Shown: piece by piece, positions 52,190 to 64,000 of the stretch
Position numbering within the stretch: position 1 is the stretch's first letter
Layout: the number at the start of each line of letters is the position of its first letter
Source of the DNA: Agarivorans albus
Lineage (GTDB): Bacteria; Pseudomonadota; Gammaproteobacteria; Enterobacterales; Celerinatantimonadaceae
Reading direction: 5' to 3'
Assembly (NCBI RefSeq): GCF_019670105.1
Contig: NZ_AP023032.1
Span: forward strand, 3,855,501 to 3,919,500
Length of the DNA: 64,000 nucleotides
Position numbers and translations under genes: made by a program
Notes under the pieces: model-generated
Database searches by the model: none
Told to the model about the DNA's origin: nothing
Seen by the model: only the letters and a program-made list of their open reading frames with translations

Positions 52190-54211
52190 ATGGACGCACA
52201 ACGTTACTCGCAACTGGTGAAACACGCTAAAATCGGCAAACAACTACCCGACGCTGTTTATTTACACAAAGACGCGATGTTTAGCTTGCCGAGTGAGCTA
52301 CAAAGCTTTATCCCCGCCGTGGCAAACGCGGTAAAGTTAGGGCCTGAACAATGGAATATCATCAAGCTATTTAAGCGCGATTTTCGCCTATCATTGCTGC
52401 ATTACCCTAACTTTTATGATGACCCGTACCCAGCCTTATCACAGAGCTTAAATGTCGACTTAGCTCGTTTGAATCACAAGATCACCAGCTACATAGGGAC
52501 AGATAACCCGCCAATACTGCACCGCAAAGAAACTATGATTGACCCAAAGCATCCAGAATTTGAAACCTTTAAAATGATTACCCAAGAAGGTGAAAACGCC
52601 GGATTATATGAGAACTCTCGCTTAATCGGGTTTAAAAGCTCTTGGATGCATCTAATTAAGCGGCACGGCTACGAGTTAGTCGATGGCCGATTATTTAGAG
52701 CTTCAGCCATAAGCAACAGTATTGAGGCTACAGGGATAGATAGACACCGTACCGCTATTGTACGTCATGAGCTATCAGCTCCAATGAAAACCTTAGTTAA
52801 ACACGGCTATCTTGAAGGTGAATACTCCATTTTTGATTATGGTTGCGGCCGTGGCGATGATTTAAGAGAGCTCGAAGCTCATGGCCTAGATGCCATAGGC
52901 TGGGACCCTAATTTTTATCCCGATACCGAAAAGCTTAACTCAGATATTGTTAACCTTGGCTTTGTGCTTAACGTCATTGAAGACCAGCACGAGCGCCTAG
53001 ATGCACTGCTTGGCGCTTGGGAGTTAAGTGACAAGTTACTGGTTATTTCTGTGATGTTGGCTAACGAGAGTTACATTGCTCAGTTCAAGCCATATAAAGA
53101 TGGGGTAATTACCTCCCGTAATACCTTCCAAAAGTACTATGCCCAATCTGAAGTTAAGTCCTATATAGAACGCAGTTTACAAGAGCAAGCGATCACCGTT
53201 GCCCCTGGCATTTTTTACGTGTTTAGAGACAAACTAGAAGAACAAAGCTATCTGCAACGTAAATACAAACGCAACCAACGTTGGGAGCAATTAACAAGCC
53301 CACAAACCCTAGAGTCAAAAGACAAAGCCAAGTTAGTCATAGCCCAGCAGCAAGAGCTTTTCACTAGCTTCTGGATTCAGTGCCTAGCCTTAGGCCGTAT
53401 CCCTGGCAACGATGAGTTTGCAGAGTCTGAAACCATCAGGGGCTTGGTTGGCTCCCATAAAAAAGCCTTTGACCTGCTTAAAGAGCTTTACGACACTAGC
53501 GAATTTGAAACAGCAGAGAAAAGCCGTAAAGAAGATTTACTGCTTTACTTTGCAATGGAACTGTTCGAAAAAAGAAAACCCTATACCCAACAGCCCGAAA
53601 ACCTAAAGCGCGACATCAAAGCATTATTTGGTGAATACAGGTCAGCTATTGAACTAGCAACAGAACTGCTTTTTGCTATCGCTGATACTGAGCTGATTAA
53701 TCGCCAATGTGAGAAAGCCCATAAAACCATGACAGCGAGCCTTCTCAACCAAGGCCACTCTCTTATCTTCCACAAACAATTTGTTGATGAACTTCCGATA
53801 CTACTACGTACCTATGTAGGCGCGGCTTTGCAAATGTATGGTGAATTAGGCGAGGACATAGATCTTATTAAGATCCACAGCACCTCAGGCAAACTTACGC
53901 TCACTGCTTATGATGACTTTGAAAAGTCAGTGCCGTTTTTAGTAGAACGTATAAAAATAAAAATGGCCGAACAGGATATCGACTTTTTTGATTATGTTGA
54001 GGAAATGCGAAGGCCCCCTTTAGTAAACAAACATTTATATTTATCAAACGACGACATAAACAAAAATAAACAAGAGAACTTCGATAAACGTCTCGCCAGA
54101 ATACTAGAGATCACACCACAAAAAGAGGCTCTTATACAAAGAGTTGAGCTAGAAACCAGTCTAGACAAAGCTAATAAGAAAATTAGAGGGTTTACTCTCG
54201 TTAAGAAATAG
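52190..54211 (+). CDS. DNA phosphorothioation-associated putative methyltransferase
   Basis: A 673-residue protein. The centre holds an AdoMet-binding motif I, SIFDYGCGRGDDLRELEAHG (about residues 214-232), followed by the acidic motif in WDPNF and NLGFVLNVIED. The N-terminal part has YFTG-free KFRDxLH-type blocks of unknown role and the long C-terminus is helical. It matches the TIGR family of methyltransferases that accompany dnd genes. Whether it modifies DNA or another target is unknown. It is second in the operon after the M15-like gene. Confidence 0.85.
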   Translation: MDAQRYSQLVKHAKIGKQLPDAVYLHKDAMFSLPSELQSFIPAVANAVKLGPEQWNIIKLFKRDFRLSLLHYPNFYDDPYPALSQSLNVDLARLNHKITSYIGTDNPPILHRKETMIDPKHPEFETFKMITQEGENAGLYENSRLIGFKSSWMHLIKRHGYELVDGRLFRASAISNSIEATGIDRHRTAIVRHELSAPMKTLVKHGYLEGEYSIFDYGCGRGDDLRELEAHGLDAIGWDPNFYPDTEKLNSDIVNLGFVLNVIEDQHERLDALLGAWELSDKLLVISVMLANESYIAQFKPYKDGVITSRNTFQKYYAQSEVKSYIERSLQEQAITVAPGIFYVFRDKLEEQSYLQRKYKRNQRWEQLTSPQTLESKDKAKLVIAQQQELFTSFWIQCLALGRIPGNDEFAESETIRGLVGSHKKAFDLLKELYDTSEFETAEKSRKEDLLLYFAMELFEKRKPYTQQPENLKRDIKALFGEYRSAIELATELLFAIADTELINRQCEKAHKTMTASLLNQGHSLIFHKQFVDELPILLRTYVGAALQMYGELGEDIDLIKIHSTSGKLTLTAYDDFEKSVPFLVERIKIKMAEQDIDFFDYVEEMRRPPLVNKHLYLSNDDINKNKQENFDKRLARILEITPQKEALIQRVELETSLDKANKKIRGFTLVKK

Positions 54212-54401: not shown

Positions 54402-55481
54402 ATGCAAAATCAAGATTCTGGATACTGTTACTCTTTCCCTGCAGTACGTGGAATTCAAGCAGGGCGAACTTTCTTCATTGCAACTTGCCCACTAAGAATC
54501 ATTCCAAAAATATTCAGCTATAACGAAAACGATGTTCCACCTGAACTTCGCGCACAACGAACGCTAAACAAAACTCGTATTCCAGATATGGTGAAATACC
54601 TATTAGACAACCCCAAAGAGTACGTTTTTTCAGCGCTAACAGCCTCTGTTGGGGTAGATATATCATTCGATGATCATGATAGTGCACCAAACCTGGGTAC
54701 CTTAAAAATCCCTATGGATGCTCAGATACTCATTAATGACGGTCAACACCGCCGCAAAGCGATCGAAGAAGCTCTTTTAGAAAACCCAGATCTAGGGCAA
54801 GACAATATTCCGGTTTTATTTTTTATAGATGAAGGATTAACGCGTAGCCAACAAATGTTTGCTGATTTAAATAAGTATGCAGTAAAACCCAGCCCATCAC
54901 TTGGAATTCGCTATGATCATAGAGACTCTAGTTCAGAACTAGCGCGTTACTTGGCAGATACTGTTACCCCATTTGTCGGATTCACTGAAATGGAAAAATC
55001 CAACATCAGCCCTAAATCAAACAAGCTGTTTACTTTAAGCAGTATCAAGCAATCAACTAAGGCTCTTTTGAGCAAAGGACCCAAAGACGGCTTTAGTGAA
55101 GAAGAGCAGCAAATTGCATCTGAATTTTGGCAGGAAGTAACAAAGAATATTAAAGACTGGCAGCTCGTTATTAGAAAAGAAGTGTCACCAGCTCAATTGC
55201 GCCAAGAGTACATCCATGCACATGGTGTCGGGTTACATGCGATTGGCGTTTTAGGTAAGCACCTGTTGTGCCAGGAGCCAAAACAGTGGAAAAAGAAGCT
55301 TCAACTACTAGGGAAAGTTAATTGGCTAAAAACCAACCCAGAATGGATCAAACGCAGCATGAATCACGGCAAGCTGAGTAAGTCGAACATAAACATTCAG
55401 CTAACCGCCAACGCACTTAAAATCGAACTTGGGTTACCACTAACCCCAGAAGAAAAAGCTCTAGAGAAGCAGTTATCATGA
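54402..55481 (+). CDS. dndB: DNA phosphorothioation protein DndB
   Basis: A 359-residue protein with the DGQHR motif (INDGQHRRKAIEEAL, about residue 110) that defines DndB. DndB is dispensable for sulfur insertion but affects modification frequency and site choice, and acts as a transcriptional regulator in Salmonella. Its stop overlaps the dndC start by 4 bp (ATGA), so the dndBCDE genes are a coupled operon. Length is typical. Confidence 0.95.
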   Translation: MQNQDSGYCYSFPAVRGIQAGRTFFIATCPLRIIPKIFSYNENDVPPELRAQRTLNKTRIPDMVKYLLDNPKEYVFSALTASVGVDISFDDHDSAPNLGTLKIPMDAQILINDGQHRRKAIEEALLENPDLGQDNIPVLFFIDEGLTRSQQMFADLNKYAVKPSPSLGIRYDHRDSSSELARYLADTVTPFVGFTEMEKSNISPKSNKLFTLSSIKQSTKALLSKGPKDGFSEEEQQIASEFWQEVTKNIKDWQLVIRKEVSPAQLRQEYIHAHGVGLHAIGVLGKHLLCQEPKQWKKKLQLLGKVNWLKTNPEWIKRSMNHGKLSKSNINIQLTANALKIELGLPLTPEEKALEKQLS

Positions 55482-57301
55482 TACACGAGCTAAAAATGGC
55501 TGAAGACCTAGCCGAAGAATACCAAGAATTCATCAACGCTGAAGAGTTCGCAAATAATAACCTCAGCCACTATGTTGCTGACGTTCAACGCGTCTATTGT
55601 GCAGACAACCGCCCATGGGTGATAGGCTATAGTGGCGGTAAAGACTCCTCCGCAGTAATGTCTCTAATTTATATGGCTCTGCTTGGGTTGGAAAAAGAAC
55701 AGCGCCACAAGCCTGTGTTTGTCGTTTCATCAGACACCTTGGTTGAGACTCCCGTCGTAGTTAACCACATTAAAGACTCCTTAGCTGCGATAGAGAAAGG
55801 AGCCAAGCGCGACGACTTACCAATCAGCTGCCACAAAGTTGTACCTAAGTCAGATCAAACGTTTTGGTCAAGTCTTCTTGGAAAAGGCTACCCAGCACCA
55901 ACTCGCTCTTTCCGTTGGTGTACTGAACGAATGAAGATCGACCCAGTGAGTGACTTTATTAAAAGCAAAGTTTCTCAATTTGACGAGGTGATCGTGGTCT
56001 TAGGCTCTCGCAGTCAAGAAAGTGCCTCGCGTGCTCAAGTTATCGCTAAGCACAAAATTGATGGTTCTCGTTTAGCTCGCCATACAACTTTAGCCAACGC
56101 ATTCATTTACACGCCGATTGATACTTGGGCTGTCGATGACGTATGGAAAATCTTACGTCTATGTCACCTAGAGACAAAAGAAACACCATTAGGTACTAGA
56201 AACATCTGGAAAGATAACTATGACCTAGAGTGGGAAAACCCATGGGGTGGCAAAAACCTTGTGCTTTGGAATCTTTATAAAGACTCTTCAGGCCAAGGCG
56301 AATGCCCAATGGTTATTGACGAAACAACACCTTCTTGCGGTAACTCTCGTTTTGGCTGTTGGACGTGCACGGTTGTAACGAAAGACCGAGCCATGGAAAG
56401 TCTCATACAAAATGGCGAGGAGTGGATGGCTCCGTTACTAAAATTTAGAAATAACCTCGCCGATACAAATGTCCCTAGAGACAAAGATATTTTTCGAAAC
56501 TTCAAGAGAAGAACAGGCCGAGTGCATGATCAACTTAAGAAGTTACCCTATGACATAAAAACTCCAGAAGCGGCTATCAATTACATAAAATCAGAGAAAC
56601 ACGATGAACTATATGAAACACAAGAGTTCCGTGTAGTAAATGATTCAAAGAATCAACCATATATGATCGAAATTTTTGACGGTGAAATTGTTGTTGAGAC
56701 TGCCAGCTATCAGATTGACTCAAAAGATGAAAAAAAGAGAAAAGCTTGGTTTTGGTCGCGATACACTCCAGGTCCTTACTGGCTTAAATACCGCCGCCAA
56801 TGGCTGCGTGAACTACTAGAGCTAGATAAGAAATTTAAGGCAGAAGGCCGAGAAATTGAACTAATCACAGTACCTGAGCTGCACGCTATTCGCCAAGAGT
56901 GGATTCATGATCCAAATGAACCAGACTGGGATGACTCTCTACCGACACTCTTCAGAGATGTTTATGGTTATGACCTAGATTGGGTATACGACGATAACGC
57001 AAGTTTTGGTAAAGATGACGCACAGTTAATTCATGAACTTTGCGACAATTTCGATGTAGAGCCAGAGATGATCATGAAACTGATCGAGCTGGAAATCTCT
57101 ATGGAAGGCTTAAGTCGTCGCAGTGGTATCACCAACAAAATCGCATCGCTATTGAAACGAGATTGGGGAAGTTTAGAAGACATCAAACAGAAACACGCGG
57201 CCCTGCAAAGTAAAGCCGAATTCGACATACACTCTCAGGAAATAGAACGTTACAACCAACAACTCGCTGAAGTCGATAAACAGCTACAAAAAGAGTTTTA
57301 A
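55478..57301 (+). CDS. dndC: DNA phosphorothioation protein DndC
   Basis: A 607-residue PAPS-reductase-like ATP pyrophosphatase. The PP-loop SGGKDS is at residues 52-57. Four cysteines for the [4Fe-4S] cluster lie in CGNSRFGCWTC and a preceding CPM. DndC carries sulfur from the cysteine desulfurase to the DNA backbone complex. Somewhat longer than many DndC (about 500-540) because of its C-terminal helical part. No dndA is present, so a host cysteine desulfurase such as IscS must provide sulfur. Confidence 0.95.
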   Translation: MIHELKMAEDLAEEYQEFINAEEFANNNLSHYVADVQRVYCADNRPWVIGYSGGKDSSAVMSLIYMALLGLEKEQRHKPVFVVSSDTLVETPVVVNHIKDSLAAIEKGAKRDDLPISCHKVVPKSDQTFWSSLLGKGYPAPTRSFRWCTERMKIDPVSDFIKSKVSQFDEVIVVLGSRSQESASRAQVIAKHKIDGSRLARHTTLANAFIYTPIDTWAVDDVWKILRLCHLETKETPLGTRNIWKDNYDLEWENPWGGKNLVLWNLYKDSSGQGECPMVIDETTPSCGNSRFGCWTCTVVTKDRAMESLIQNGEEWMAPLLKFRNNLADTNVPRDKDIFRNFKRRTGRVHDQLKKLPYDIKTPEAAINYIKSEKHDELYETQEFRVVNDSKNQPYMIEIFDGEIVVETASYQIDSKDEKKRKAWFWSRYTPGPYWLKYRRQWLRELLELDKKFKAEGREIELITVPELHAIRQEWIHDPNEPDWDDSLPTLFRDVYGYDLDWVYDDNASFGKDDAQLIHELCDNFDVEPEMIMKLIELEISMEGLSRRSGITNKIASLLKRDWGSLEDIKQKHAALQSKAEFDIHSQEIERYNQQLAEVDKQLQKEF

Positions 57302-57309
57302 CTTAAGCC

Positions 57310-59319
57310 ATGCTAATAACTAAATTAACGCTTAACAACTTTAGAGTATTTCGTGGTGTTCACGAAATAGATTTGATGCCAGCCCCAGCTCAAGTAAATA
57401 GAAAAGGTCAAGAAATAACATTCCCACGACCTATCATTCTATTTGGTGGTCTTAACGGTGCTGGTAAAACATCGATCCTGACAGCTGTACGACTCGCTCT
57501 TTTTGGCCGTCAATCATTCAGCCAAGTGCTATCCAATGGCGAGTATGTAGATGCCCTATCCGAGCTCATCCATAAAGGTGTCGGCCACGGTGGGGGTCAA
57601 GATAACGCATCTATCGAGCTCGACTTTAAATACAGCCAAAACGGTGAAGAAAGTACTTATAAAGTGATTCGAAGCTGGAAACTTGGCAAGAAAGACAACC
57701 TATGTCTTGAAAAAGATGGCATCCAAATTCCAGAGCTTAATTACGAGCAATGCCAAGGCTTTCTTAATGAGCTTATTCCAACAGGTATTGCTGACTTATT
57801 TTTCTTTGACGGCGAAAAAATCGCTGAACTAGCGGAAGATGAATCAGGTAGCGTGCTTAAAACGGCTGTGCGTCGCCTGCTCGGTTTGGATGTAATTGCG
57901 AAACTTAAAAGCGACCTAAATATCTTCTTGAAAAAGCAAGGTTCAGAAGCTTTAAGCCAATCTCTAAAAGAAGAGATGAATGCATTAGATGAGCAAAGAA
58001 TTGATCACGAACGTAAAGCTGAGAAGCTTCGTGGTGAGGCTGATATTGTTGATGCTCAAATTGAGCTAGTATCACGCGATATTCTTACTCTGGAGAACAA
58101 GCTTTCACAGAATGGTGGAGCTTGGGCAAAAACCAGAGAAGATGAACAACACAAAGTTACGAGCTTGCTTAGAGAGAAAGTCGAGCTTGAGAAGCAGATT
58201 CGAATGGAAATGGAAACCAACCTTCCATTTTCACTTGCTCCGAAGGCGATGCAAAGGCTTCAAACTCAGATCAAGCAAGAACAACAAGTTAAGAAGAAGC
58301 AGAACTTTAGTAATGAGCTAGATTCCTTCCTAGAAACTCTATGCTCAAAATACCCAAGCTTTGATACCGAGATGGCGCAAAACGCAATCACAGACAGCTT
58401 CAAAGCACACGTCGGTGAATTCGATTCAACTCTGCTTATGTTGGATATATCTGATCGCCAAGCGAACACCATCGACTACCAGTTATCAAACTTATCACAA
58501 GATTCTTTCTCTCGTTTCGACAAAGCACGAGTACGCCTTCAAAAAGTCGAAGACGAAATCGACAACGCTTCAAACAATATCGCGCGAGCACCAGAGCAAG
58601 AGCAAGTGCAGGAGTTGTTTGCAGATGTCCGCGCTTTAGATAAGAAGAAAGAAAAGCTGATTATCAAATATCATGACTTGCTGGAAAAGGCTAAGCAAGA
58701 ACTTCGACTAGCTTTAGAAACAGCGCGCCAAATTCAGAAGCTACACGATAAGCACAAAGATCAATCGAATAAAGATCAAAGCATTAGCAACGCTCAAAAC
58801 TCTATCTTATTGCTAAAGATGTTTGGTGAGCAGTTAACTAAAGCTCGTGTTAATCAGTTAGAAAATGAGTTCGTTCAGTCATACAAAAAGCTTGCTCGTA
58901 AGGAAGATTTACAGCTAACTGCTTCAATCAACCCAGCAACATTCGATGTTGAATTAGTTGATGAACACGGTATTAAGATCAACCGTAAGGCGATGTCTGC
59001 GGGTGAAAAACAGATTTATGCGATCTCGATTCTAGAGGCTCTTGGTCGTACATCTGGTCGTAAGCTACCTATCATCATTGACACTCCGCTAGGCAGATTA
59101 GACTCACATCACCGTGACAAACTGGTAGAGAACTATTTCCCAACTGCAAGCCACCAAGTGGTAATTCTATCGACAGATACAGAAATCGATAGAAACTACA
59201 CAAGTCTCATTCAAGACGATATTGCTCGCACTTACGAGATCTGTTTCGACGGTACAACTAAGGCTTCAACATTGAAAGAAGGTTACTTCTGGAAAGAATC
59301 GATAAAGGAGGCTCTTTAA
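57310..59319 (+). CDS. dndD: DNA phosphorothioation ATPase DndD
   Basis: A 669-residue SMC-like ATPase. Walker A is GGLNGAGKTS (residues 46-55), the middle is a long coiled coil with a hinge-like centre, and the C-terminus has the ABC signature AMSAGEKQIYA and Walker B LPIIIDTPLGRLD. It is thought to alter DNA structure or nick DNA during sulfur insertion. It starts 8 bp after dndC, and its stop overlaps the dndE start. Confidence 0.96.
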   Translation: MLITKLTLNNFRVFRGVHEIDLMPAPAQVNRKGQEITFPRPIILFGGLNGAGKTSILTAVRLALFGRQSFSQVLSNGEYVDALSELIHKGVGHGGGQDNASIELDFKYSQNGEESTYKVIRSWKLGKKDNLCLEKDGIQIPELNYEQCQGFLNELIPTGIADLFFFDGEKIAELAEDESGSVLKTAVRRLLGLDVIAKLKSDLNIFLKKQGSEALSQSLKEEMNALDEQRIDHERKAEKLRGEADIVDAQIELVSRDILTLENKLSQNGGAWAKTREDEQHKVTSLLREKVELEKQIRMEMETNLPFSLAPKAMQRLQTQIKQEQQVKKKQNFSNELDSFLETLCSKYPSFDTEMAQNAITDSFKAHVGEFDSTLLMLDISDRQANTIDYQLSNLSQDSFSRFDKARVRLQKVEDEIDNASNNIARAPEQEQVQELFADVRALDKKKEKLIIKYHDLLEKAKQELRLALETARQIQKLHDKHKDQSNKDQSISNAQNSILLLKMFGEQLTKARVNQLENEFVQSYKKLARKEDLQLTASINPATFDVELVDEHGIKINRKAMSAGEKQIYAISILEALGRTSGRKLPIIIDTPLGRLDSHHRDKLVENYFPTASHQVVILSTDTEIDRNYTSLIQDDIARTYEICFDGTTKASTLKEGYFWKESIKEAL

Positions 59320-59666
59320 TGCTACCTAACCGCATGAATTTAACCCGCTCTACAGAAGAGCAGCTCAAAAAGCTAAAGGGTTATACTGGAATCACTCCAA
59401 ACGTATCGGCTCGTATCGCTTTCTTCCGCTCTATTGAAAGTGACTTTCGATACCAAGGGCAAGAAACTAAGCTAGACGGCTCACTTGTACTAGATAAGTA
59501 CACATGGCTTGGTGAGACTGGTGAAGTAACTGAGCTAATGCTGAAAATGTACTATCCAGAACTTGATACAAAAGAGTATCAACAGGCTTGGGCAGCACAT
59601 GTTGAGGACGGGATTGCACCAATTAGAACTCACAAAACTCTCAATAACTTATCATTAAATATATAA
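59319..59666 (+). CDS. dndE: DNA phosphorothioation protein DndE
   Basis: A 115-residue protein with the DndE features: RMNLTRSTEEQLKKLKGYTGITPNVSARIAFF and a lysine-rich basic helix face. DndE is a small tetrameric DNA-binding protein with preference for nicked DNA. Start ATG overlaps the dndD stop (TAATG). It ends the modification operon. Confidence 0.93.
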   Translation: MLPNRMNLTRSTEEQLKKLKGYTGITPNVSARIAFFRSIESDFRYQGQETKLDGSLVLDKYTWLGETGEVTELMLKMYYPELDTKEYQQAWAAHVEDGIAPIRTHKTLNNLSLNI

Positions 59667-59672
59667 TACACT

Positions 59673-59704
59673 TTAGTCTTCTAGTGATGCCTCTAGAAGA
59701 CTAA
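59673..59704. terminator. Convergent terminator hairpin between dndE and the Mrr-like gene
   Basis: TTAGTCTTCTAG / CTAGAAGACTAA is a perfect 12-bp stem with an 8-base loop. The U tracts are poor on both strands (TTTATAAT), so it may rely on the stem. Confidence 0.7.
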
Positions 59705-59723
59705 TTTATAATGTATAGCTAGC

Positions 59724-60557
59724 CTAAAATTCACTATCCCTTTGGTAGAGTTTATTTACATACCAAGAATCAAGCTTATCTAATACATCTTGATAATTCA
59801 TACTTGATAAAATAGCTTGTGAAATCAAGAATGAATCACGCAAGCAAATATTATTTCTTATTGCATAATCTCTGATAGTATTAGTTAACTTCCCATTGGT
59901 TACGAATAAATAGGATAAGTCATATGACGGACTGGCGGCATTAACATTTAATCTATTGAAATATTTCTCTCTTATTCCAGAGTTCGACTTTATTCTATCT
60001 TGAAAAAATGCATCCTCATAAACAACCAATTTCTTATCTAATGTCTTACCACATTTCTTTGATTGAATAAAAAGCACTCTTTGCTCTACAGCAGTTCTAG
60101 AGTTTGATAGTTTAGCAATTATATCAATTCCGCCATCATTATTACCATCAACAATAATAACTCTTTGGTAACCTTGACATAAAACATATAGTACAGATAC
60201 AAGAAGAAGTTTATCAGGGCAAAACCCCCTAATTAATTCATTTAGTTTCTTTGATTCAATCCAGTCGAACTTCAATTCAGCTTGCTGATGCTTGTGAGTT
60301 GCGACCTTGTCTTTTGAAATCCAAAATATTGGTGGAGAAACTCCGAGGCAATTATAGCTATCTATGATTTTATCAATTCTATTTTCGATAGCAGCATCGC
60401 AACGTTTTGCCAACTTCTCTGCATCTAAAGGCTTGTAGTGCTCTTGGTCTTTTAAGTAACGGTATGCCAAAGAGTATGGCGTAAAACTTTTTACGCCAAT
60501 ATCCTCAAAATTGTCAGTAAACTCGTCAAGTTTTTTAACTAATTCAGAAGGAGTCAT
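59724..60557 (-). CDS. Mrr-like PD-(D/E)xK nuclease
   Basis: A 277-residue protein. After a helical N-terminal half there is DGGIDIIAKL (Asp145) and VLFIQSKKCG (Gln165-x-Lys167), the D...QxK pattern of the Mrr/PD-(D/E)xK family, and DLSYLFVTNGKLTNTIRDYAIRNNI, similar to the last part of Mrr domains. It would cut DNA. It starts 5 bp after the ParB-like gene stop with GGAAGAG upstream, so the two are an operon. The base composition here is AT-rich. No published name is claimed. Confidence 0.72.
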   Translation of the reverse strand: MTPSELVKKLDEFTDNFEDIGVKSFTPYSLAYRYLKDQEHYKPLDAEKLAKRCDAAIENRIDKIIDSYNCLGVSPPIFWISKDKVATHKHQQAELKFDWIESKKLNELIRGFCPDKLLLVSVLYVLCQGYQRVIIVDGNNDGGIDIIAKLSNSRTAVEQRVLFIQSKKCGKTLDKKLVVYEDAFFQDRIKSNSGIREKYFNRLNVNAASPSYDLSYLFVTNGKLTNTIRDYAIRNNICLRDSFLISQAILSSMNYQDVLDKLDSWYVNKLYQRDSEF

Positions 60558-60562
60558 GGAAG

Positions 60563-61651
60563 CTACTCTTCCAACATACTATTAATAACTTCTCGTAATT
60601 GCTTCAAGCTAGAAAACACATCGTCTCTAGATTTTCGTATGGTAGCATAAGGTATATTAGTTATTGCTTTCTCCGCTCTTAAAACTTCTGTTTTCCAATC
60701 GTATTCTTTCGTCTGTTCAGCTCTTCCCCAAGCCTGCTCTATAGATATGTCAAAATTATCAACTTCTGCGATTAGATCATCTCTTTTTCTATTTACTAGA
60801 TTACCGATATACCTAACATGCTTAGGATCATGTATTCTTCGTCCAGTACTGCCAAGTTCAGTATTTTCCTCATCTGGACTTATCCATTCACAAAACTGCC
60901 TAAAGTTATCCTCATTCTCGTAACGATATTCATCATCATTCCACTGCATCCATACTCTTACATCTTTATTTTTATAAGCTTGCTCAAAAAGTGAAAAGTA
61001 TTCATTCTTCGCTTTGTAACGAAGTTCAGGATGATTTTCCATCTGTTGCAACCCTTTATAGCCTCTATATAAGCTACCAACAGCTTTTGCAGACAAACCA
61101 AACTGTTTGCCCACCTCTGTAAAACTTTTATTCTTAATTTCTATTTGGTCGAGTATCAATTTAGCTCGTTGAGTAGGCGACCAGTCTTTTATCCCCGAAA
61201 TATGCCTTATACCTTGCAGCATCCATGAAATATCTTCATCAGTCCCTGAATACTCTAGCACTTTTAAGCTTTTTATCGATTCAATTAGTTTTTCAACATA
61301 ATCTTCACCTAACTCTGCATCATCAATATCACCTGACTCATACCTTTCAATGCAAGTTTTTATTGCAGATATTCTTCGGTTTCCTTCAAGTACGTAGTAT
61401 TGATCATCTTGACCTTCTACTTTTTTAACAACTACTCGATCCATTGGTAAAAAGCCATTAATCAGAATGCTGTTTACTAATTCTTCTATATTGTATCTTT
61501 GAATTAAACGTAGGGAGTCTTTCTGAACCTTATCGGAAGTATACTTACTAAATGGTACTCTCTTATCTTCTTCAAAAAACCTAGGGTTATTTGGATCAAG
61601 AAATATTTTATCAATAGGTAATTCTTTTTCTTTTAGATAGTCACTGTACAT
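60563..61651 (-). CDS. ParB/Srx-fold protein in the PT locus
   Basis: A 362-residue protein with a ParB N-terminal (Srx-fold) domain: LPIDKIFLDPNNPRF, NIEELVNSILINGFLPMDRVVV and VLEGNRRISAIK (EGNRR at residues 89-93). An HTH-like region with TEVGKQFGLSAKAVGSLYRG (residues about 180-200) follows as in ParB. The C-terminus is unknown. ParB-fold proteins bind DNA and CTP, and the related DUF262/DGQR fold is used in SspE and DndB. A strong GAGGT lies 5 bp before the ATG, and the Mrr-like nuclease is translated next. Confidence 0.75.
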   Translation of the reverse strand: MYSDYLKEKELPIDKIFLDPNNPRFFEEDKRVPFSKYTSDKVQKDSLRLIQRYNIEELVNSILINGFLPMDRVVVKKVEGQDDQYYVLEGNRRISAIKTCIERYESGDIDDAELGEDYVEKLIESIKSLKVLEYSGTDEDISWMLQGIRHISGIKDWSPTQRAKLILDQIEIKNKSFTEVGKQFGLSAKAVGSLYRGYKGLQQMENHPELRYKAKNEYFSLFEQAYKNKDVRVWMQWNDDEYRYENEDNFRQFCEWISPDEENTELGSTGRRIHDPKHVRYIGNLVNRKRDDLIAEVDNFDISIEQAWGRAEQTKEYDWKTEVLRAEKAITNIPYATIRKSRDDVFSSLKQLREVINSMLEE

Positions 61652-61806
61652 GTATACCTCAATAGATTAATTAATTTATATAAAATTGATGATAATCCAC
61701 CATCATCTAAAATTTATTTAGTACCCGATAGTCATTTTTAAAACCTGAAATACTATTCTTATATATCGTTCGTATTTCTAGCCTGTCGATATAAAACGAC
61801 TTAATA

Positions 61807-62676
61807 TTAGATAAGCTTGAAAACCTCTCTTACATGCCATTCACACGCCTTTTCAGATGGATATAAATACGTATCTCTTGGTAGGTAAATCTGCTTGTTC
61901 TCATAATCCCAAATCATACGCTCTACCATACTCCCGCCTGTCACAGCTGGAGATACCTGTACTTTGAGTTCACTATTGAAAGTAATTACGCCTCTATCAA
62001 GTGCCTTATGGTGAATACTGCAAAGAGCAATACCATTCGAGACCTCACAAGGGCCAAAGTACTGCTTCCATTTTATATGAGCAGCTTCAATACCCACAGG
62101 GACAGTATCTAAAGCTAAATCAAAACCACACACTGCACAGCGATAGTTATAAGCACGTAGAACATTTTTACGAAAACTAGGATCACGTTGCTTAGTTGAT
62201 GTATCAACTTCAAAACCAAAACGAACAAACAATTCTTCCTGTAACGTATCAGGGAAGTTGTCTTGGATTAGCTTAGAAGCAATTTTTTCTATCAACTCTG
62301 GATTAGAAATTAAGCTCTGATACGAGGAAGCGTCAAACCCCGCCATTACATTGTATTTAATGAGCTCTGACTTTTTCGGGTCTGTATTGCTTTTGCGAGG
62401 AATGCACTCTTCACCATTTTTTAATTCCCAAAATGGATCCTTCTCATTAGCCAAGCGCCAAAATGAATACTCCGGATGGTAGGCTTTTCGCGAAGGGCCA
62501 TACTGAACAAGTAGCTCTTTAACCTGGTAGTCCACTTCCTTCTCAAACTGGAACAAGCGCTCATGGCCTTGCTTGTACTGAGATAAGGCATACAACAACA
62601 TTAGGGGTTTGTTCGGAGCGCGTTGATCTCCGCGTCGCCATCGTGAAATCATTTGAATTTTTTCGAGTAGATCCAT
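61807..62676 (-). CDS. Sulfur-binding-domain HNH restriction endonuclease (type IV)
   Basis: About 289 residues. The N-terminal half resembles the sulfur-binding domain of PT-dependent McrA-type nucleases: RAPNKPLMLLYALSQY, then YGPSRKAYHPEYSFWRL. The C-terminus is an HNH nuclease with zinc cysteines: YRCAVCGF, IEAAHIKW, NGIALCSIHHKALD. Such enzymes cleave phosphorothioated DNA. I chose ATG 62676, with GGAAG 6 bp upstream; the longer frame to 62715 adds MYNRTGFLLWKLL without family support. It follows the dptH stop by about 105 bp. Confidence 0.85.
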   Translation of the reverse strand: MDLLEKIQMISRWRRGDQRAPNKPLMLLYALSQYKQGHERLFQFEKEVDYQVKELLVQYGPSRKAYHPEYSFWRLANEKDPFWELKNGEECIPRKSNTDPKKSELIKYNVMAGFDASSYQSLISNPELIEKIASKLIQDNFPDTLQEELFVRFGFEVDTSTKQRDPSFRKNVLRAYNYRCAVCGFDLALDTVPVGIEAAHIKWKQYFGPCEVSNGIALCSIHHKALDRGVITFNSELKVQVSPAVTGGSMVERMIWDYENKQIYLPRDTYLYPSEKACEWHVREVFKLI

Positions 62677-62781: not shown

Positions 62782-64000
62782 TTATTGAAGAAGCTCCCAG
62801 AATGCTTTATCTCTCATAGGAAGTATCTTCTTCCCTCCATCAATGTATAAGCTATAGTGCTTCTCTAGCTTGTTGATAGTTTCCATTAGTTTCTCTTGTT
62901 CAGCTTTCTCATTGACACCAAACATCGCTTTTAGCTCTTGTGGACGAATCTTCGCTACGCGGTGGATTACCCATGTAAGCACGTAGCTTGAGTAATCGTT
63001 CTCGCCTGTTTGGAAGTGGGTAATGTCTTGTGTGGAAAGGATCACACCAACACCGTATTCACGGCCTTCCTTCAAGATCTTACGCAAGCTTGGGAAGTTT
63101 TGAGACATGAAGTTATCGGCTTCATCCACCAAGATCATTTTAGTGATTTGGCGGAAGTCGCCCTGCACTTCTGGCTTACCCTTCTTCTGCATCTGTGAGT
63201 AAAAGAGATCTAACGTAAGCGCAACAACAAGGTTCTGAATCTCTGCTGGGTAACCTGCTAGCTCTACGACAGTGATACCATCAACCAAGTCATAAAGGCT
63301 CATGCACTTGGTGTTGTCATCTTCAAAAATCTCTAACTCATACAGGCTCTCGAGTGCCGCATATAATGAATCTTCATCTGGGTCTGTCTCAATGAACAAG
63401 TCCCATACTTGTGAGATTGTAGGCGCTGGTTTTGACCAAGTACTTGGATCTGCTTTGCGAATACCCGCTAACTCATACGCTTCACCCACCAACTTACGTA
63501 AGCGCAGTTGCTGCTTTTGACCTAAACCAAAGGCTTTACCCATGGTTTCAGAGAAGCCTCGTGCGGTATGCACTGGCAACATCGGTGTATCACCAAACAG
63601 GCTAAGTGGGTTATATGGCAGCTTGTGAAGGTTGAACTTCTTACCCGTGGTTACTTGTTGGAATTTGTCGTCTACATAATCGGATTTGTAGTCGAAAATA
63701 AGCATACCAATTGGCGCGCCGTTTACGTTGTCAGCTTGATTGCGGTAAAGCTGAGTAATCACCGATTTGGTAAACTGCGTTTTACCTGTACCCATGGTGC
63801 CGATAATACCGGTATTGGTATTCATGAATTTGGCAGTATTGGTTGGCTCCCAGTTCAATGGTGCTTGTGTTAGCGCATTGTGGCCAAATAGCACGTTTAG
63901 GTTGCTGTTAGCCTCAACCTTCATAGGCTCAACTGCTGGCATTACTTGCTCTTCAACAACTGGTTGTTCAAGCTGCACTGATTCTGTAGTGTCAACCTCA
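62782..64000 (-). CDS. dptH: DNA phosphorothioation-dependent restriction protein DptH, C-terminal part (partial)
   Basis: At least 405 codons, open to the window edge. The visible part is a HerA/FtsK-like ATPase: Walker A GTMGTGKTQF (about residue 56 of the visible frame), Walker B KMILVDEADNF, then an arginine-finger-like EGREYGVGVILSTQD. This is the C-terminal region of DptH of the DptFGH PT-dependent restriction complex. The frame continues upstream of the GTG at 63978 with no stop, so the start and dptF, dptG are expected beyond the right edge. Confidence 0.85.
   Translation of the reverse strand, partial: EVDTTESVQLEQPVVEEQVMPAVEPMKVEANSNLNVLFGHNALTQAPLNWEPTNTAKFMNTNTGIIGTMGTGKTQFTKSVITQLYRNQADNVNGAPIGMLIFDYKSDYVDDKFQQVTTGKKFNLHKLPYNPLSLFGDTPMLPVHTARGFSETMGKAFGLGQKQQLRLRKLVGEAYELAGIRKADPSTWSKPAPTISQVWDLFIETDPDEDSLYAALESLYELEIFEDDNTKCMSLYDLVDGITVVELAGYPAEIQNLVVALTLDLFYSQMQKKGKPEVQGDFRQITKMILVDEADNFMSQNFPSLRKILKEGREYGVGVILSTQDITHFQTGENDYSSYVLTWVIHRVAKIRPQELKAMFGVNEKAEQEKLMETINKLEKHYSLYIDGGKKILPMRDKAFWELLQ

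What the first reader, a model, noticed from the sequence alone, without database searches (positions are those of the whole stretch)
59724..61651. ParB-like plus Mrr-like gene pair inside a phosphorothioation locus
Two tightly coupled genes (5 bp apart) sit between dndBCDE and the SBD-HNH/dptH genes. One has a ParB/Srx-fold EGNRR motif and ParB-type HTH, the other a D-x-QxK nuclease core. Known PT restriction modules are DptFGH, SspE, SspFGH and SBD-HNH; I know of no ParB-Mrr pair. A CTP- or DNA-sensing ParB partner could license the nuclease on unmodified or PT DNA, a possible new restriction module. AT-rich composition suggests separate acquisition.
Basis: partly seen in the sequence, partly recalled or inferred. 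Interest (0 to 1): 0.75.

Follow-up and report, generated by a model that had tools for sequence, protein, structure and literature searches.

The report
ParB-Mrr restriction cassette in phosphorothioate island
Two adjacent bacterial genes, a ParB-like protein and a probable DNA-cutting enzyme, form a swappable defence cassette inside an island that marks DNA with sulfur; many relatives of the pair sit beside DNA-methylating enzymes instead, so the same kind of cutter may work with different self marks.

Summary
60563-61651(-) is a 362-aa ParB-superfamily protein (EGNRR); 5 bp downstream, 59724-60557(-) is a 277-aa Mrr-type nuclease (Pfam over cut-off; G143/D145/Q165/K167 invariant in 7 of 7 aligned partners). 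They lie between dndBCDE and HNH-dptHGF. A Colwellia PT island has the same pair in the same place (ParB 82%, Mrr 47%). In a related island with 79-83% identical flanks the segment is replaced by a membrane-protein + DGQHR pair.

The pair is not PT-specific. It belongs to an apparently unnamed family of ParB + PD-(D/E)xK pairs. In the larger branch 61 of 67 loci have a DNA methyltransferase beside the pair; in the window's branch 5 of 8 readable loci have neither methyltransferase nor dnd. PT islands hold such pairs in two branches (window/Colwellia, and G266), both in the dptH-dndE slot.

Best reading: a ParB-switch plus nuclease restriction cassette in a PT-island cargo slot, probably using or tolerating PT as self mark. 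PT gating is inferred, not shown. The Mrr structure model was unusable; a ParB model was never run. New variant of a known kind.

The parts
60563..61651 (-). ParB/Srx-superfamily protein, 362 aa (EGNRR motif at 89-93), predicted nucleotide/DNA-sensing partner
   Evidence: (PDC-M38A 154 bits)
59724..60557 (-). Mrr-type PD-(D/E)xK nuclease, 277 aa; core G143-x-D145 ... Q165-x-K167
   Evidence: Mrr_cat over cut-off; 7 of 7 rows
59656..61820 (.). exchangeable segment: DNA identity to the related island L163 (G178) stops at 59655 and resumes at 61821; L163 has a membrane-protein + DGQHR pair here
59673..59704 (.). terminator-like hairpin between the converging dndE and Mrr genes (12 pairs, reported on both strands)
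   Evidence: 6 terminator-like sites in the region, shuffles 1.3 +/- 1.0
61807..62676 (-). HNH endonuclease with a match to the McrA chain 5zmo at residues 14-141 (probable sulfur-binding domain); same slot, upstream gene
54402..59666 (+). dndB, dndC, dndD, dndE phosphorothioation genes, converging on the cassette
62782..64000 (-). 3' part of dptH (1701 aa; runs past the window, followed by dptG and dptF)
52190..54211 (+). 673-aa protein, Methyltransf_23 below cut-off; a homologue in L169 is annotated 'DNA phosphorothioation-associated putative methyltransferase'

Best explanation
A two-gene restriction cassette (ParB-fold sensor/switch plus Mrr-type nuclease) inserted in the cargo slot between dptH and dndE of a Dnd-Dpt phosphorothioation island. 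SHOWN: gene anatomy, the conserved EGNRR and G-x-D...Q-x-K signatures, the same pair in the same slot in Colwellia, swapping of the segment between related islands, and membership in a family of ParB + PD-(D/E)xK-like pairs whose larger branch adjoins DNA methyltransferases. INFERRED: the ParB protein binds NTP through its EGNRR motif and contacts DNA; its state licenses the separately encoded nuclease to cut invading DNA; the host is spared because its DNA carries PT (compare DndI and SspE) or because the ParB state otherwise blocks cleavage. I put 'nuclease-based defence pair' at about 0.85 and 'PT is the mark that spares or licenses it here' at about 0.45.
For: Mrr core. Pair with 5 bp spacing, 29 bp behind dptH, in the Colwellia PT island. 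All 7 clade-I rows of the first tree have partners with the Mrr signature (the HMM was built from these seven), and an eighth partner outside that HMM, L177, matches it at 3e-32. A clade-II pair occupies the same slot in G266/L152. Clade II is arranged like restriction-modification: methyltransferase at gene offset +2 in 55 of 63 and at -1 in 5 of 66, 0 or 1 at every other offset from -8 to +8; 61 of 67 loci within -3..+4. 10 of 10 such neighbours given to Pfam pass a DNA methyltransferase cut-off. The two partner types are related (hhalign, one comparison, probability 94, E 1.2e-7; D in 64 of 64, Q in 63 of 64, following K in 59 of 64). Window genome: 0 PF00145, 0 PF01555, 1 PF02086 that looks like Dam. 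ParB strongly constrained: dN 0.13 against 0.26-0.52 for 8 other genes of the island, synonymous sites near or at saturation in all 9. Precedent for ParB-like + nuclease PT effectors.
Against: Most clade-I relatives lie away from PT genes and without an adjacent methyltransferase (L018, L019, L020, L119, L177). DndC was not found in 7 of 7 records searched, though that call's control genomes did not ring either. L152's nearest relative, on a Persicobacter plasmid (L196), has neither dnd nor a methyltransferase within 12 kb, nor a DndC or PF00145 match on the whole plasmid. Slot capture may reflect only general clustering of defence genes. The Mrr structure model is useless. No activity, NTP binding or PT sensing was tested.
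Confidence: 0.55

Rival explanations
1. Autonomous defence pair: ParB-Mrr needs no cognate modification (it senses phage DNA, modified phage DNA or infection) and merely occupies a defence hotspot inside the PT island, as PDC-M38 (ParB fusion + TOPRIM-like partner) lies beside P2-like phage genes.
For: Clade I is mostly stand-alone: 5 of 8 unfused loci with readable context lack both dnd and an adjacent methyltransferase (for L177 the methyltransferase was looked for by eye). Fused PDC-M38A relatives, which fall in clade I, sit beside P2-like phage genes. The Mrr partner resembles 4f0p, by recall the modification-dependent enzyme MspJI. The slot holds many unrelated cargos.
Against: The two closest members, from different genera and with saturated synonymous divergence, both stay in the dptH-dndE slot of PT islands. 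A methyltransferase-type pair was captured in the same slot.
Confidence: 0.32
2. Restriction half of a restriction-modification system that lost its methyltransferase and is now silent or decaying.
For: The sister branch mostly has a methyltransferase (61 of 67); none is beside the window pair, and the genome has no PF00145 or PF01555 match.
Against: Both ORFs are open here and in Colwellia. ParB is the slowest-evolving of nine compared island genes. Clade I mostly lacks linked methyltransferases, so there may have been none to lose.
Confidence: 0.06
3. ParB is a regulator or DNA-binding factor of the PT island (like DndB) and the Mrr protein acts alone; the coupling is only operonic.
For: DndB is a ParB-superfamily regulator (PMC10853773 and PMC12704722 passages). 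ParB is far more conserved than Mrr.
Against: ParB proteins of this family are followed by a nuclease-like partner gene in phages, plasmids and chromosomes, away from PT loci.
Confidence: 0.07

Closest known systems
DndI (IscS-DndBCDE-DndI) and SspE: DUF262 (ParB-like) + HNH
   Same: ParB-superfamily nucleotide motif coupled to a nuclease at a PT locus; DndI is adjacent to dndBCDE and cotranscribed with dndFGH, apparently the same slot (passages)
   Different: one polypeptide with DUF262 and DUF1524-HNH; here two genes, a different ParB family (EGNRR) and a PD-(D/E)xK Mrr nuclease; no PT sensing shown
PADLOC PDC-M38 (phage defence candidate)
   Same: N-terminal ~360 aa is the same ParB family (154 bits for the window protein, 160 bits for L007); falls in clade I
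   Different: 724-752 aa with a long C-terminal extension, followed by a ~180-300 aa TOPRIM-like gene (recognised by eye) instead of Mrr
PD-lambda-5
   Same: ParB-like N-terminal region (PADLOC PD-Lambda-5_A matches); described as a compacted prophage RM+Abi system (passages)
   Different: longer ParB-type protein (438-576 aa in the loci seen); in 6 of 7 such loci with wide flanks the next gene carries a methyltransferase motif; no Mrr pair seen
Clade-II ParB + PD-(D/E)xK-like + methyltransferase loci (e.g. phage Wphi gp98-gp96-mth)
   Same: homologous ParB gene and remotely related partner, same order and tight coupling
   Different: the lysine lies further on (Q....W..K) and a methyltransferase is usually present; only G266 (L152) lies in a PT locus
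Mrr / MspJI-type modification-dependent enzymes (MspJI recalled)
   Same: Mrr-type catalytic core
   Different: no fused modification reader was recognised in the window protein; recognition presumably lies in ParB

Membership tests
Mrr / PD-(D/E)xK nuclease | Pfam Mrr_cat over the curated cut-off | tested here: met
   23.9 bits against 21; Colwellia 21.3; L007 49.6
Mrr / PD-(D/E)xK nuclease | catalytic D ... Q-x-K conserved | tested here: met
   G143, D145, Q165, K167 invariant in 7 of 7
Mrr / PD-(D/E)xK nuclease | alpha-beta core in a structure model | tested here: inconclusive
   model mean pLDDT 41
ParB/Srx superfamily | ParB_N over the Pfam cut-off | tested here: not met
   17.5 against 26.3 bits
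ParB/Srx superfamily | GxRR-type nucleotide motif | tested here: met
   EGNRR in 8 of 8 and in 25 of 25 rows not fetched by this motif; that it is the nucleotide motif is recalled and by analogy
ParB/Srx superfamily | HTH after the ParB domain | tested here: inconclusive
   only sub-significant second-domain alignments; HTH otherwise judged by eye
ParB/Srx superfamily | NTP binding and hydrolysis | not testable with these tools
   needs biochemistry
PT-dependent restriction module | genetic linkage to dnd/dpt genes | tested here: met
   window, Colwellia L005, and a cousin pair in G266 L152
PT-dependent restriction module | restricted to PT genomes or loci | tested here: not met
   6 of 8 unfused clade-I loci with readable context lie elsewhere; no DndC in 7 of 7 records, control silent
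PT-dependent restriction module | PT-dependent activity or self-protection | not testable with these tools
   needs assays
PDC-M38 | fused ~700-aa ParB protein plus TOPRIM-like partner | tested here: not met
   window ParB 362 aa, Mrr partner
PD-lambda-5 | long ParB protein with a methyltransferase as partner gene | tested here: not met
DndI / SspE | DUF262 + DUF1524-HNH in one protein | tested here: not met
   GmrSD_N 14.3 bits, below the 33.2 cut-off; no HNH match in either protein

The most novel reading that the evidence does not exclude
ParB + PD-(D/E)xK gene pairs are a mark-agnostic restriction core: one sensor-nuclease design that natural systems combine with C5-, N6- or N4-methylation or, in the dptH-dndE slot, with DNA phosphorothioation, a backbone sulfur mark, with the ParB fold as the interchangeable reader that gates the nuclease.
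Probability: 0.3. Interest if true: 0.82.

Novelty: new variant of a known kind. Interest (0 to 1): 0.6.

Why it matters
If PT gating holds, this is a further architecture for reading sulfur marks, beside DptFGH, SspFGH, DUF262-HNH and SBD-HNH (the list is partly recalled), built from a split ParB switch and an Mrr nuclease. It would also show that a restriction module can trade base methylation for backbone phosphorothioation. Even without PT gating, the survey defines an apparently unnamed ParB + PD-(D/E)xK family found in phages, plasmids and chromosomes, and identifies the dptH-dndE junction of PT islands as a cargo slot in which a ParB-superfamily gene is common (9 of 13 islands found by dptH search alone; the DGQHR members are counted by recalled kinship). 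A 2015 E. coli study saw this place as 1 to 3 hypothetical proteins (PMC4373003 passages).

Tried and rejected
Mrr query: no relative in plasmids. One weak match besides the own genome among 295 order genomes (E 3.6e-4). No relative among 55 pattern hits in genome contigs. No match of the pair's DNA in 5,426 E. coli genomes at blastn sensitivity.

PF04471 searched in the own genome gave 0 matches although the protein itself passes the cut-off. This is a sensitivity limit of the six-frame search and a warning for the other zero counts.

ParB against DGQHR profiles: no significant match beyond the motif. Their kinship is recalled superfamily knowledge, not shown here.

Mrr structure model: mean pLDDT 41 from 5 rows; not used for a fold search. 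The ParB model was never accepted because the machine was busy.

dptH search over the class sample found only the own genome (1 of 369 at E 1e-100), so the slot survey rests mainly on the order sample (18 of 295).

Circularity that I allowed for: the 80 viral-contig loci (80 kept of 108) were fetched with a pattern holding EGNRR, so the motif's invariance was checked on rows fetched otherwise. The Mrr HMM was built from the seven partners it then finds. The methyltransferase HMMs were seeded with 58 motif-bearing neighbours at offsets +2 and -1, so an unrelated methyltransferase at another offset could be missed; Pfam confirmed 10 of 10 neighbours given to it.

Considered and set aside: recent transfer of ParB alone to explain 82% identity (synonymous sites saturated); 'PT replaced methylation in G266' as proof (its sister L196 lacks both nearby; G266 has a C5 methyltransferase elsewhere, with a Vsr-like gene beside it recognised by eye).

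Literature: no paper on this pair in the listings of searches, in an open-access library that lacks most subscription papers and preprints.
Full report
WHAT IS THERE. The window has an open Mrr-type gene (59724-60557, minus, 277 aa) 5 bp downstream of an open ParB-type gene (60563-61651, minus, 362 aa). On the plus strand dndB, dndC, dndD and dndE run towards them (54402-59666). On the minus strand an HNH gene, dptH, dptG and dptF lie upstream. A terminator-like hairpin (59673-59704, reported on both strands) separates the converging dndE and Mrr genes. The nuclease passes Pfam Mrr_cat (23.9 against 21 bits). ParB_N is sub-threshold (17.5 against 26.3), but the PADLOC candidate family PDC-M38A gives 154 bits.

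SAME PAIR, SAME PLACE. One close relative came from the genome contigs (1 of 12 pattern stretches): Colwellia sp. C2M11 (L005). There dptF-dptG-dptH-ParB-Mrr run in one direction (ParB 29 bp after dptH, Mrr 5 bp after ParB) against dndE-D-C-B; there is no HNH gene between. ParB is 82% and Mrr 47% identical. Synonymous sites are near or at saturation in all nine compared genes (proportion differing 0.71-0.87). The nonsynonymous distance is 0.129 for ParB and 0.518 for Mrr, against 0.26-0.50 for the other seven: DndB 0.260, DndC 0.266, DndD 0.452, DndE 0.306, DptG 0.499, DptH 0.376, and the 673-aa methyltransferase-like protein 0.487. ParB is therefore the most conserved protein compared and its partner the least. 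A recent transfer of ParB alone is excluded by the saturation. That ParB reads something invariant while the nuclease diversifies is my inference.

AN EXCHANGEABLE SEGMENT. Against G178 (L163) the island is 78.9% identical at DNA level through dndB-dndE and 82.8% through dptH-HNH. Identity stops at 59655 and resumes at 61821. In between, L163 has a small membrane-protein-like gene and a DGQHR (Pfam DndB, 37.8 bits against 29.1) gene instead of ParB-Mrr. I surveyed islands found by dptH alone: 18 of 295 order genomes matched, the own genome included. I fetched 15 of the other 17; the two not fetched matched only the C-terminal part. Thirteen of the 15 show dptH and dnd genes with a slot between (in L165 and L166 the dndE gene was recognised by eye). 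One of 13 has a ParB + nuclease-like pair (L152). Eight of 13 have a DGQHR/DndB-like gene: L157, L158, L159, L162, L163, L164 and L165 beside a gene with 1-4 hydrophobic segments (crude hydropathy, by which the window Mrr also scores one), and L160 in another arrangement. Four of 13 have other cargo (L154 AIPR/AbiU, L155, L156, L166); the L156 cargo has a sub-cut-off DndB match. Dropped: L153 (contig end) and L161 (no dnd genes in the stretch). Three plasmid islands, of 17 plasmid records with a DptH match, were also read: two have the membrane + DGQHR pair (L167, L169); in the third, dnd lies on the other side of dptFGH (L168). Of 204 E. coli genomes with a dptH match three were read: the slot is empty in L170 (284 bp), dptH is truncated in L171, and L172 has DUF262 + an ATP-dependent nuclease. 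PMC4373003 (passages) already noted that dpt and dnd clusters in E. coli are often separated by 1 to 3 hypothetical proteins found only in dnd-positive genomes. The DGQHR-ParB kinship is recalled; my profile comparison did not show it.

THE FAMILY. Profile and pattern searches of phage, plasmid, viral-contig and genome loci gave many ~360-aa ParB proteins followed by a same-strand partner. I built a tree of 74 rows, kept from 94 after removing near copies; before that I had dropped hits outside 340-450 aa and 14 loci, nearly all second copies of the same places. It splits with full support. Clade I (7 rows): window, Colwellia, L018, L019, L020, L119 and L114; all 7 partners share G143, D145, Q165 and K167, and an eighth, L177, matches their HMM at 3e-32. 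Clade II (67 rows): 64 same-strand partners of 280-400 aa were aligned; they have a conserved D (64 of 64), Q (63 of 64) and, instead of Q-x-K, a lysine in W..K (59 of 64). Their profile matches the Mrr partners (probability 94, E 1.2e-7, one comparison). In clade II a methyltransferase lies two genes on in 55 of 63 loci, or just before ParB in 5 of 66, and in 0 or 1 locus at every other offset from -8 to +8; 61 of 67 loci have one within -3..+4. The HMMs for that count were seeded with 58 motif-bearing neighbours at +2 and -1, so other kinds elsewhere could be missed; Pfam of 10 neighbours given to it DNA methyltransferases over cut-off (5 PF00145, 4 PF02086, 1 PF01555). Of the 6 misses four are cut by a contig end (17-1046 bp left), L016 has two annotated cytosine methyltransferase genes about 6 kb upstream, and L152 lies in a PT island. 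By motif labels the 67 are C5 40, N6-like 14, N4-like 5, none 7, PT 1. Rows related by descent (P2-like phages) are not independent. The PT label needs two changes on the tree; L152 is a long branch there.

AGAINST A PT-ONLY READING. Of 8 unfused clade-I loci with readable context, 2 are in PT islands, 1 is beside a 911-aa methyltransferase-like gene (L114) and 5 have neither (L018, L019, L020, L119, L177; L177 by eye for the methyltransferase); L173 is cut and not counted. No DndC was found in 7 of 7 such records, including two whole genomes, but that call's control genomes were silent too. C5 methyltransferases occur in 3 of 6 records searched; in the two viral ones they lie tens of kb from the pair. 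L152's nearest relative, on a Persicobacter plasmid (L196), has neither mark system within 12 kb and no DndC or PF00145 match on the plasmid. Fused relatives (PDC-M38A type, 724-752 aa, with a TOPRIM-like partner recognised by eye) fall in clade I and some stand beside P2-like phage genes. Autonomy of the window pair therefore remains a serious rival.

MECHANISM. The known parallels are SspE and DndI: a ParB-like DUF262 domain senses PT, NTP hydrolysis through DGQQR follows, and the HNH nuclease is licensed (SspE) or released from self DNA (DndI) (passages of PMC13251355 and PMC11662687). ParB folds bind CTP, ATP or GTP, and binding was lost when a conserved P-motif arginine was changed (PMC12704722 passages). 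The window protein keeps EGNRR, present in 25 of 25 relatives and own rows that were not fetched by that motif. From memory, canonical ParB has an E-N-x-x-R motif where this family has R-H-x-x-G, so a classical CTP clamp should not be assumed. In the window genome the only match of three DNA methyltransferase families searched is one PF02086 gene beside DamX-, rpe- and gph-like genes (judged by eye), probably Dam; PF00145 and PF01555 gave none. Other families such as type I HsdM were not searched, and one search shows that such searches can miss. PT is thus the likeliest self mark if one is needed.

NOVELTY. PMC10853773 (abstract and passages only) reports many nucleases beside Dnd genes and systems with cytosine methylases instead of PT; the word Mrr does not occur in its held text, and the 5 occurrences of ParB (4 places, all shown) concern DndB, the ParB superfamily in general, or a reference. 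No paper on the ParB-Mrr pair appeared in the listings of searches. I rate it a new variant of a known kind.

Noticed in passing
L157, L158, L159, L162, L163, L164, L165, L167, L169 (between dptH and dndE): The most common cargo of the dptH-dndE slot in the islands read is a small membrane-protein-like gene plus a DGQHR (DndB-family) gene, possibly a membrane-effector defence pair.
   Followed up: partly
L178-L184: PDC-M38A-type fused ParB proteins (744-752 aa) with a TOPRIM-like partner gene (by eye), several beside P2-like terminase or portal genes.
   Followed up: partly
L154:11732-13570: A same-genus genome (G163) with a related PT island carries an AIPR/AbiU-type protein in the slot instead of HNH-ParB-Mrr.
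   Followed up: partly
window 61807-62676: HNH protein with a match to the McrA chain 5zmo next to dnd genes: a probable PT-binding nuclease in the same island that makes PT.
   Followed up: partly
L069, L022, L186: Vsr-like short-patch repair genes (recognised by eye) near C5 methyltransferases, in two clade-II loci and at the unlinked C5 gene of G266.
   Followed up: no
L002:1267-2787: Integrase-like gene (by eye) just beyond the dptF side of the island; no tRNA found in L001 or L002, so the attachment site is unclear.
   Followed up: no
L005:12049-13452: Extra 467-aa protein with a SAM methyltransferase domain in the Colwellia slot, between Mrr and dndE; Pfam gives general methyltransferase families, not DNA methylases.
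   Followed up: partly
L196:12001-14070: ParB + nuclease-like pair on a Persicobacter (Bacteroidota) plasmid without a linked methyltransferase or dnd, among many small hypothetical genes.
   Followed up: partly
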